Below, piece by piece: positions 55,085-60,670 of a stretch of DNA of 64,000 nt (its first letter is position 1; each line of letters opens with the position of its first letter). The position numbers and the translations under genes were made by a program. The stretch comes from Methylobacterium sp. (GTDB lineage Bacteria > Pseudomonadota > Alphaproteobacteria > Rhizobiales > Beijerinckiaceae). The stretch is from assembly GCA_020253445.1 (NCBI GenBank), contig JADCBP010000004.1:1-64000 (forward strand), given 5' to 3'. Below the pieces are notes generated by a model. The model saw nothing but the letters and a program-made list of their open reading frames with translations, had not been told where the DNA came from and ran no database searches.

Positions 55085-55165
55085 CCGGATGATCCCGATC
55101 TCTTCCGGAAATGGTTGCGGCGAAGCGCGACCGCGCATCCCGGCTTTTGCGAGGGGCAGGAACCC

Positions 55166-55846
55166 ATGACCGTCGCCACCCTTCGGCTTGCCGATGTCTG
55201 CCGCGCCTTCGGTTCGGGCGAGAACCAGATCCGCGTGCTCGATGGCGCGGATTTCATGCTCCGGCCCGGCGAGATGGTGGCGCTCGTCGGCCCTTCCGGG
55301 GCCGGCAAATCCACCCTGCTGCATATTGCGGGGCTGCTCGAACATGCCGACAAGGGCGAGGTCTTCATTGGCGAGACGGCAACCGCCAACCTTGATGACG
55401 AGGCCCGCACGCGCCTGCGTCGCCACGAAATCGGGTTCGTCTATCAGTTCCATCACCTCATGCCGGAATTCTCGGCCATCGAGAATGTGGTGATGCCCCA
55501 GCGCATTGCTGGCCTCGGCCCGGACGAGGCGGCCATGCGTGCCCGCGACGTTCTGGGCTTCCTCGGCCTCGGGCACCGCCTCGACCATCGCCCCGGCGAG
55601 CTTTCCGGCGGCGAGCAGCAGCGCGTGGCGATCGCGCGCGCGGTGGCAAACTCCCCCTCGCTGCTGCTGGCGGATGAGCCCACGGGCAATCTCGATCCGG
55701 TCACCGGCCAGCATGTCTTCGCGACGCTCCAGAGCCTCGTGAAGCAATCTGGCCTCGCGGCCCTGATTGCGACCCACAATCTCGAACTCGCGCGCCGCAT
55801 GGATCGCTGCGTGACGCTGAAGGAGGGGCGGGTCGTCGAGGCCTGA
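55166..55846 (+). CDS. lolD: Lipoprotein-releasing system ATP-binding protein
   Basis: 226 aa from the ATG at 55166. Walker [13 protein letters not shown], the Q-loop in [12 protein letters not shown] (the LolD-type signature), ABC signature [14 protein letters not shown], Walker [13 protein letters not shown] and the H-loop ATHN are all intact. It powers lipoprotein release with LolC. 81 bp separate it from lolC. Confidence 0.96.
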
Positions 55847-55880: not shown

Positions 55881-55909
55881 TTGACTCAAGCCTCGGAAGG
55901 TCTAGAACA
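55881..55909 (+). promoter_or_regulatory. Promoter upstream of the SOS-type small gene
   Basis: TTGACT (55881-55886), 17-bp spacer, AGAACA (55904-55909). The -10 hexamer overlaps the LexA box at 55905, the arrangement expected for an SOS-repressed promoter. Confidence 0.6.
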
Positions 55910-55919
55910 AAACACGAAC
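55905..55919 (+). promoter_or_regulatory. LexA (SOS) box, alphaproteobacterial type
   Basis: GAACAAAACACGAAC is a perfect GAAC-N7-GAAC direct repeat, the established LexA operator of Rhizobiales and Caulobacter (equivalently GTTC-N7-GTTC). The A-rich spacer AAAACAC resembles spacers in known boxes. It lies 29 bp before the ATG of the 34-codon gene and ~155 bp before dnaE. Confidence 0.8.
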
Positions 55920-55947
55920 ATTTTCATCCGGTGTTGGGAGGAGCCGC

Positions 55948-56052
55948 ATGTTGAGATCTGTGGAAGACTGGATTGAATGCGCGTCGCTGACCGTCTTTTT
56001 CGCTATGGTCGCGGTCGCCTATGGGGCGGTGGGAAACCTGCCGCTGGTATGA
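55948..56052 (+). CDS. 34-aa single-helix membrane peptide under LexA control (SidA-like layout)
   Basis: 34 aa with an excellent ribosome-binding site (GGGAGGAG at 55936-55943, 4 bp spacing). A short charged N-terminus (MLRSVEDWIECA) is followed by one hydrophobic helix (SLTVFFAMVAVAYGAVG) and ends NLPLV. It is preceded by a promoter with a perfect LexA box and ends 22 bp before dnaE. SOS-induced tiny membrane proteins that block division are known (Caulobacter SidA, ~29 aa, acts on FtsW). I infer a similar role from layout, size and topology; I cannot show sequence homology. Confidence 0.7.
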   Translation: MLRSVEDWIECASLTVFFAMVAVAYGAVGNLPLV

Positions 56053-56074: not shown

Positions 56075-59533
<3,459 letters not shown>

Positions 59534-59677: not shown

Positions 59678-60670
59678 ATGTCGGCACCTGATTTCTCGAT
59701 GCGTCAGCTTCTCGAAGCCGGCGCGCATTTCGGTCACCAGTCGCATCGCTGGAACCCGAAAATGGCTCCGTTCATTTTCGGCACGCGCAACAACATCCAT
59801 ATCATCGACCTCGCCCAGACCGTGCCGATGCTCTATCGAGCGCTGGAAGCTGTTTCGGACACCGTGGCACGTGGCGGTCGCGTGCTGATGGTCGGCACGA
59901 AGCGCCAGGCGCAGGACCCGATCGCGGCTGCGGCGAAGGCCTCGGCCCAGTATTACGTGAACTCGCGCTGGCTCGGCGGCACGCTGACCAACTGGAAGAC
60001 GATCTCGATCTCCATCCAGCGGCTGCGCAAGGTGGACGAGACCCTTGCCGGCGGCGCGGTCGGCCTCACGAAGAAAGAGCGCCTGATGCTCACCCGCGAG
60101 CAGGAGAAGCTCACCCGCGCGCTCGGCGGCATCAAGGACATGGGCGGCACGCCCGATCTGATCTTCGTGATCGACACGAACAAGGAACAGCTGGCCATCC
60201 AGGAGGCGAGGCGCCTGAACATCCCGGTTGTGGCGATCGTCGACACCAACTGCGATCCGGATGGCGTGACCTTCCCGGTTCCGGCGAATGACGATGCGGG
60301 CCGCGCGATCCAGCTCTATTGCGACCTCGTGAGCCGTGCGGCGATCGATGGCATCTCGCGCAGCCAGTCCTCGCTCGGCGTGGATGTCGGCGCTTCGGTC
60401 AACCCGATGGCGGAAGACCTGCCGGTTGCGGCTTCGTCCGAAGGCTTCCAGCGCCTCGCGGCGCCGCAGGGCGCGCCGGATGATCTCTCGAAGCTTGGTG
60501 GCGTGGGCCCGCAGCTTGCGACCAAGCTCAACGAATATGGCATCTTCCACTTCTGGCAGCTCGCAGCCATGTCGGAAGCCGATGTCGCGGCGCTCGATGC
60601 CGAACTCAAGCTGAACGGCCGCGCCGCGCGTGATGGCTGGCTCGACACGGCCCGCGCGCTCGCCGCTTAA
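59678..60670 (+). CDS. rpsB: 30S ribosomal protein S2 with C-terminal HhH extension
   Basis: 330 aa from the ATG at 59678 (CCGGAG upstream). The S2 core (1-~235) shows [34 protein letters not shown] and [15 protein letters not shown]. After a linker, residues ~268-330 form a helix-hairpin-helix domain ([41 protein letters not shown]) that is closely similar to the C-terminus of NuoE. S2 extensions of this kind are common in Rhizobiales; their role is not known to me. Confidence 0.97.

What the first reader, a model, noticed from the sequence alone, without database searches (positions are those of the whole stretch)
55881..56052. SOS-controlled 34-aa membrane peptide upstream of dnaE (SidA-like layout)
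A TTGACT promoter, a perfect GAAC-N7-GAAC LexA operator over its -10, a near-ideal Shine-Dalgarno and a 34-codon single-helix gene lie in 170 bp. Caulobacter uses an SOS-induced membrane peptide of similar size, SidA, to stop division through FtsW. This may be an undescribed Rhizobiales counterpart, and its coupling to the replicative polymerase gene would link damage response, division arrest and polymerase supply.
Basis: partly seen in the sequence, partly recalled or inferred. Interest (0 to 1): 0.85.

Follow-up and report, generated by a model that had tools for sequence, protein, structure and literature searches.

The report
SidA-type SOS peptide before dnaE
A tiny membrane-peptide gene under a DNA-damage switch just in front of the DNA polymerase gene belongs to the same family, at the same place in the chromosome, as Caulobacter's known cell-division brake SidA, and the family is found in several orders of Alphaproteobacteria.

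Summary
Window 55881-56052 holds a TTGACT/TAGAAC promoter, a perfect LexA operator GAACAAAACACGAAC over the -10, a Shine-Dalgarno and a 34-codon single-helix frame, 22 nt before dnaE.

Promoter, operator and frame are kept in all 15 same-genus (Rhabdaerophilum) loci found, the window included, with purifying selection on the protein. In 145 dnaE loci of the order, 82 have a perfect operator and 71 of these a Shine-Dalgarno plus transmembrane frame (1.1 expected by shuffling).

The SidA analogy turns out to be homology at one locus. In Caulobacter vibrioides the frame before dnaE is 29 aa long and lies beside the nucleoside hydrolase, the place and length that published locus tags and text give for SidA. 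A profile made only from other Hyphomicrobiales peptides finds it (E 7e-5; best of 7,599 decoys 0.045). The window's own copy is one of the most diverged.

Best reading: a LexA-repressed SidA ortholog that arrests septation through FtsW/FtsI/FtsN. Family and regulation are well supported by sequence; action on division is inferred from Caulobacter. SOS supply of polymerase is not shown. I found no report of SidA outside Caulobacter in the papers searched.

The parts
55881..55886 (+). -35 element TTGACT
   Evidence: Sequence. TTGAC kept in 15 of 15 same-genus loci.
55903..55908 (+). -10 element TAGAAC, overlapping the operator
   Evidence: Sequence. TAGAAC kept in 15 of 15 same-genus loci.
55905..55919 (+). 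LexA operator GAACAAAACACGAAC (GAAC-N7-GAAC)
   Evidence: Perfect in 15 of 15 same-genus loci and in 82 of 145 order loci upstream of dnaE. The same motif lies between uvrA-like and ssb-like genes and before an imuA-like gene in this genome.
55936..55943 (+). Shine-Dalgarno GGGAGGAG
   Evidence: Sequence, 4 nt before the start codon.
55948..56052 (+). sidA-like gene, 34 aa, MLRSVEDWIECASLTVFFAMVAVAYGAVGNLPLV
   Evidence: (pN<pS in 104 of 105 pairs).
56075..59533 (+). dnaE, DNA polymerase III alpha subunit
   Evidence: Pfam PHP and DNA_pol3_alpha.
55115..55846 (+). lolD-like ABC ATPase gene upstream (start uncertain: TTG 55115 or ATG 55166)
   Evidence: Pfam ABC_tran.

Best explanation
It is an ortholog of Caulobacter SidA, a LexA-repressed single-pass inner-membrane peptide encoded just before dnaE. 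LexA sits on the -10 and blocks transcription. When RecA-ssDNA triggers LexA cleavage the peptide is made, inserts in the inner membrane and, as the published model has it for SidA, holds the FtsW/FtsI/FtsN septal synthase inactive, so division stops until DNA is repaired. Shown here by sequence: promoter, operator, coding constraint, family membership and the locus. Inferred: induction, membrane insertion, the FtsW target and division arrest in this organism. Not shown: that dnaE is co-induced.
For: Same-genus conservation of promoter, operator and frame, 15 of 15 loci found, window included. Order survey: 71 of 82 boxed loci carry a Shine-Dalgarno plus transmembrane frame; shuffled mean 1.08, maximum 4. 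Box and frame co-occur: both 76, box only 6, frame only 8, neither 55. In C. vibrioides T5M6 (L401) a 29-aa frame lies between a divergent IU nucleoside hydrolase and dnaE. Papers give sidA = CCNA_02004 (PMC10769358), CCNA_02005 = IU nucleoside hydrolase (PMC3667746), dnaE = CC1926 (PMC1839093) and SidA = 29-aa inner-membrane FtsW binder (PMC4211646). A profile from 65 order peptides without the window genus finds C. vibrioides SidA at E 7.3e-5 and 11 of the 15 genus loci at 9.6e-7 to 2.8e-3; best of 7,599 decoys 0.045. SidA profile: ranks 16-50 of 10,819 ORFs are all dnaE-upstream frames. Profile-profile genus vs SidA 90.7%, 0 of 200 column shuffles as good.
Against: The window's own sequence scores only E 1.2 with the order profile, its near relative L010 6.8, and L011 was not found at E 10; the window copy is not among the 70 best hits printed for the SidA profile. 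Its membership rests on its genus mates (L012, 76% identical, scores 2.8e-3) and on position. 61 of 145 order loci lack a detected frame. C. vibrioides itself has only one-mismatch boxes by this pattern. I saw no functional evidence for a non-Caulobacter member.
Confidence: 0.8

Rival explanations
1. The frame is a leader (uORF) whose translation tunes dnaE expression; the peptide itself does nothing.
For: It lies 22 nt before dnaE here. A translated sORF25 in the 5'-UTR of S. meliloti dnaE1 was reported, and such 5'-UTR sORFs were suggested as possible uORFs (PMC10117765 section 24).
Against: The amino-acid sequence is under purifying selection and shared across orders. The gap to dnaE reaches 590 nt. 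Caulobacter SidA is a described division inhibitor (PMC4211646 passages).
Confidence: 0.08
2. It is an SOS membrane peptide with another target: a DidA-like binder of FtsN, or a depolarising peptide like DinQ or TisB.
For: Same size and architecture class. DidA targets FtsN (PMC4211646 passages). Small SOS membrane peptides have several fates (PMC3567139, title and abstract start; TisB recalled).
Against: Family relation to SidA and not just architecture: composition-preserving decoys fail, and of 695 transmembrane segments of long frames only two pass E 0.01, both being dnaE-upstream family frames.
Confidence: 0.09
3. LexA controls dnaE alone and the frame is fortuitous.
For: Operator and dnaE are adjacent with no other large frame on that strand between lolD and dnaE. 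6 of 82 boxed order loci have no detected frame.
Against: 76 of 82 boxed loci have the frame; for the 71 found by the rule shuffling gives 1.08 of 82; pN<pS in 104 of 105 pairs.
Confidence: 0.02
4. Box and promoter match by chance.
For: GAAC-N7-GAAC with one mismatch is not enriched in the window (49 found, 41.7 expected).
Against: Perfect box at the same place in 15 of 15 genus loci; controls 1-4 of 145 against 82 of 145.
Confidence: 0.01

Closest known systems
SidA of Caulobacter crescentus (CCNA_02004)
   Same: Short single-pass peptide, SOS-regulated, gene directly before dnaE, recognisably the same sequence family.
   Different: 34 aa against 29 aa; low pairwise identity; acidic N-terminal stretch (E6, D7, E10) against R6, E7 in SidA; perfect operator here, one-mismatch boxes in C. 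vibrioides T5M6; function untested.
DidA of Caulobacter
   Same: Small single-pass division inhibitor acting on FtsW/I/N.
   Different: 71 aa, SOS-independent (DriD), targets FtsN (PMC4211646 passages); sequence not compared.
YneA, SosA and ChiZ of Gram-positive bacteria
   Same: Damage-induced membrane inhibitors of division, predicted to act on FtsW (PMC13396833 passages).
   Different: SidA is predicted there to bind the other side of FtsW TM7, and YneA carries a LysM domain; sequences not compared here.
S. meliloti sORF25
   Same: Translated small frame in the 5'-UTR of dnaE1 (PMC10117765 section 24).
   Different: Its sequence was not seen; identity with this family is inferred from position only.

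Membership tests
SidA family | About 29-aa single-transmembrane peptide | tested here: met
   34 aa, helix 2-29; lengths 24-42, median 32 in 71 order members.
SidA family | Under LexA control | tested here: met
   Perfect operator over the -10, conserved. Sequence only; induction not tested.
SidA family | Gene directly upstream of dnaE, as Caulobacter sidA | tested here: met
   here; with PMC10769358, PMC3667746 and PMC1839093 for Caulobacter.
SidA family | Sequence homology to SidA, genus profile | tested here: met
   hhalign 90.7%, 0 of 200 column shuffles as good. With the order profile 11 of 15 genus loci score 9.6e-7 to 2.8e-3; L009 1.2, L010 6.8, L011 not listed, L017 outside the ORF set because its open frame is longer than 90 aa.
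SidA family | Sequence homology to SidA, window sequence alone | tested here: inconclusive
   E 1.2 with the order profile; not in the 70 best printed for the SidA profile.
SidA family | Binds FtsW and blocks division when induced | not testable with these tools
   Known for SidA (PMC4211646 passages).
LexA regulon of Alphaproteobacteria | GAAC-N7-GAAC (GTTC-N7-GTTC) operator | tested here: met
   consensus for Caulobacter stated in PMC12700426 (passage); uvrA/ssb-like and imuA-like genes of this genome carry it.

The most novel reading that the evidence does not exclude
sidA is not a Caulobacter speciality but an old alphaproteobacterial SOS checkpoint gene, carried as a leader gene of dnaE from Hyphomicrobiales through Parvibaculaceae, Micropepsales, Maricaulis and its kin, and Caulobacterales. 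It is the SOS division inhibitor that Hyphomicrobiales were missing (none had been recognised there, to my knowledge), and its fixed place couples division arrest to the replicase locus.
Probability: 0.6. Interest if true: 0.75.

Novelty: new member of a known kind. Interest (0 to 1): 0.65.

Why it matters
How Hyphomicrobiales stop division after DNA damage is, to my knowledge (recalled), not known at the level of an inhibitor. A peptide family with one consensus, one locus and one operator makes the question directly testable in many laboratory species, and gives dozens of natural variants for mapping the SidA-FtsW contact. It also points annotators to a real gene before dnaE: none of 8 family members tested reached a Pfam or NCBIfam cut-off.

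Tried and rejected
Treating the peptide as genus-specific: direct peptide search in 61 genomes gave 15 of 17 same-genus hits and only weak hits elsewhere (E 0.37-1.2); the wider family appeared only when dnaE upstream regions were read.

Guesses about unnamed families were wrong: f128, f34, f92, f29 and f55 were each tried as Caulobacteraceae. f55 has no box in 16 of 16 loci.

Named loci without a detected frame: Thalassospira (4 of 4), Stella, Nitrospirillum, Niveispirillum, BAL199 and Oceanibaculum; the last has a perfect box match at -71 but no frame.

Family libraries: no Pfam match; one NCBIfam match far under its cut-off (E 0.23, 10.6 bits against 250). A first LolD count was made in a wrong frame and redone. 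One script stopped on a missing file after its table was printed.

The original SidA paper (Modell 2011), the Caulobacter SOS regulon paper (da Rocha 2008) and Erill 2004 are not held, so whether they mention relatives or the dnaE neighbourhood was not checked.

Full report
WHAT IS THERE. Searches confirm every element at the stated place: TTGACT 55881-55886, TAGAAC 55903-55908, operator GAACAAAACACGAAC 55905-55919, Shine-Dalgarno GGGAGGAG 55936-55943, ATG 55948, stop 56050-56052, dnaE ATG 56075. The upstream neighbour is a lolD-like ABC ATPase and the downstream one dnaE (Pfam).

IS THE FRAME A GENE? The peptide was found in 15 of 17 same-genus genomes, own included; the two misses (G005, G010) are 83% and 78% complete. 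All 15 loci have a perfect operator, the frame and dnaE behind it. TTGAC and TAGAAC are present in 15 of 15, and the operator ends 18-43 nt before the start codon. Mean pS is 0.423 and mean pN 0.199, with pN<pS in 104 of 105 pairs; the same stretch read in the other two frames gives 0.236/0.247 and 0.258/0.250. These 15 were collected by the peptide itself, so they test the operator and the kind of change, not how often the gene occurs. AlphaFold2 gives one helix.

IS IT CONSERVED WITH THE BOX? Loci were next collected by dnaE alone. In the order, 149 of 150 genomes gave a dnaE N-terminus; 145 upstream stretches were read (4 genomes of 1.3-1.4 Mb not fetched; some stretches are short, the shortest 329 bp). 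82 of 145 have a perfect GAAC-N7-GAAC within at most 900 bp, against 1-4 of 145 for five control patterns. 71 of the 82 have, 5-115 nt after it, a 24-60 aa frame with a Shine-Dalgarno and a transmembrane stretch; shuffling the downstream DNA gives a mean of 1.08 and a maximum of 4 of 82. A profile trained on these peptides adds 13 frames: box and frame 76, box only 6, frame only 8, neither 55; Fisher p 2.9e-24, not corrected for kinship. All 8 frames without a perfect box have at least one one-mismatch box nearby (chance rate of that not computed). Other sets: f34 (Parvibaculaceae-like), 23 of 28 by the rule plus 1 by profile; f29, 28 of 30 loci, out of 62 genomes with a dnaE match; f92, 6 of 8; f55, 0 of 16; 64 other class loci taken from the 377 genomes matched, 8 plus 1; the 30 loci given for the 80 genomes. 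The family is thus patchy outside some groups.

IS IT SIDA? Named genomes were reached through an MreB scan; 29 of 30 gave a dnaE locus, and these were read. In Caulobacter vibrioides T5M6 the frame before dnaE is [29 protein letters not shown], 29 aa, with a divergent inosine-uridine nucleoside hydrolase on the other side. Published text gives sidA as CCNA_02004 (PMC10769358, passage), CCNA_02005 as that hydrolase (PMC3667746, passage), dnaE as CC1926 in the other strain's numbering (PMC1839093, table passage), and SidA as a 29-aa inner-membrane protein that interacts with FtsW (PMC4211646, passages). I conclude that the frame is sidA; I did not see its sequence in print, and T5M6 is not the laboratory strain. 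By together, 20 of 29 named loci have such a frame (Caulobacter, Phenylobacterium, Brevundimonas, Asticcacaulis, Maricaulis, Oceanicaulis, Glycocaulis, Hellea, Parvibaculum and uncultured kin); L386 (Glycocaulis) rests on position and a weak score (E 0.15), L408 (Asticcacaulis) on position and on being itself in the SidA profile. Nine lack it (Thalassospira 4, Oceanibaculum, Stella, Nitrospirillum, Niveispirillum, BAL199).

SEQUENCE TEST. A profile of 65 distinct order peptides, made without the window's genus, was run on 10,819 small ORFs (20-90 aa) of all 473 loci. Of 187 hits at E up to 10, 120 lie outside the training loci and only these were inspected. They are mostly dnaE-upstream frames: of Parvibaculaceae-like and other genomes, the window genus (L014 9.6e-7, L016 8.4e-6, L015 1.7e-5, L012 2.8e-3) and Caulobacter SidA (7.3e-5). 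The window copy itself scores 1.2, L010 6.8, and L011 is not listed. The first hits not lying directly before dnaE are L287 (E 0.016, about 1.5 kb upstream) and L339 (0.12, an MreB locus). Of 7,599 shuffled or reversed peptides none reaches 0.01 (best 0.045). Of 695 transmembrane segments in long frames two pass 0.01, and both are dnaE-upstream family frames lying inside longer open stretches (L017, L113) (for L113). The reverse test, a profile of 12 Caulobacteraceae peptides, puts Caulobacterales loci at ranks 1-15 (13 of them the source of the profile) and only dnaE-upstream frames of other groups at ranks 16-50; the first unrelated ORF is rank 51 (E 0.68). From rank 22 on E-values exceed 0.01, so there the ranking is the evidence, and some loci are near-duplicates. 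Profile-profile comparison: genus against SidA 90.7%, genus against order 96.0%, order against SidA 86.7%, with 0 of 200 column shuffles reaching any of the three.

REGULATION. The same operator stands between uvrA-like and ssb-like genes and before the imuA-like gene ahead of a second dnaE in this genome (gene names read from sequence; second dnaE position). The consensus GTTC-N7-GTTC for Caulobacter LexA and sidA as an early SOS gene are in PMC12700426 (passages).

MECHANISM. [quoted passage not shown] an AlphaFold3 model stated to be of low confidence puts SidA on FtsW TM7 (PMC13396833 passage). By homology the window peptide should do the same. That step is inference.

dnaE COUPLING. With a 22-nt gap a common transcript is likely here, but the gap ranges from 22 to 590 nt in 71 order loci, so co-induction of dnaE is not a conserved design by this evidence.

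NOVELTY. Searches of the held library: sidA+dnaE+Caulobacter+LexA gave 1 paper, whose one SidA passage concerns Caulobacter. The listings (18 of 18 papers; 20 of 92; 10 of 19) show no title or abstract start that reports a SidA relative outside Caulobacter. S. meliloti ribosome profiling found a translated sORF25 in the 5'-UTR of dnaE1; the words SidA, SOS and LexA do not occur in that main text (PMC10117765). The primary SidA paper could not be read.

Noticed in passing
window 60602-60616: A second perfect GAAC-N7-GAAC lies inside the rpsB-like coding frame; probably chance.
   Followed up: no
L468 (G000:C13:195900-199100): Perfect A-rich operator between divergent uvrA-like and ssb-like genes.
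   Followed up: partly
L005 and L303 (G000:C6): Operator just before an imuA-like frame, with a second dnaE (dnaE2-like) about 3 kb on: probably the SOS mutagenesis cassette.
   Followed up: partly
L471 (G000:C17:28900-32100): Operator at the start of a divergent frame that reads like a phage Gp37/DUF5131 protein (label recalled).
   Followed up: no
L158, L159, L188 (G057, G480, G511, one genus): Boxed frames with a very short conserved core; L159 and L188 are only 24 aa, among the shortest family candidates.
   Followed up: no
L401 upstream of 1364: In Caulobacter a nucleoside hydrolase gene on the other strand lies between a lolD-like end at the far left of the locus and sidA-dnaE.
   Followed up: partly
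S. meliloti dnaE1 5'-UTR (literature): Translated sORF25 of unknown function, possibly a family member (PMC10117765 section 24).
   Followed up: no
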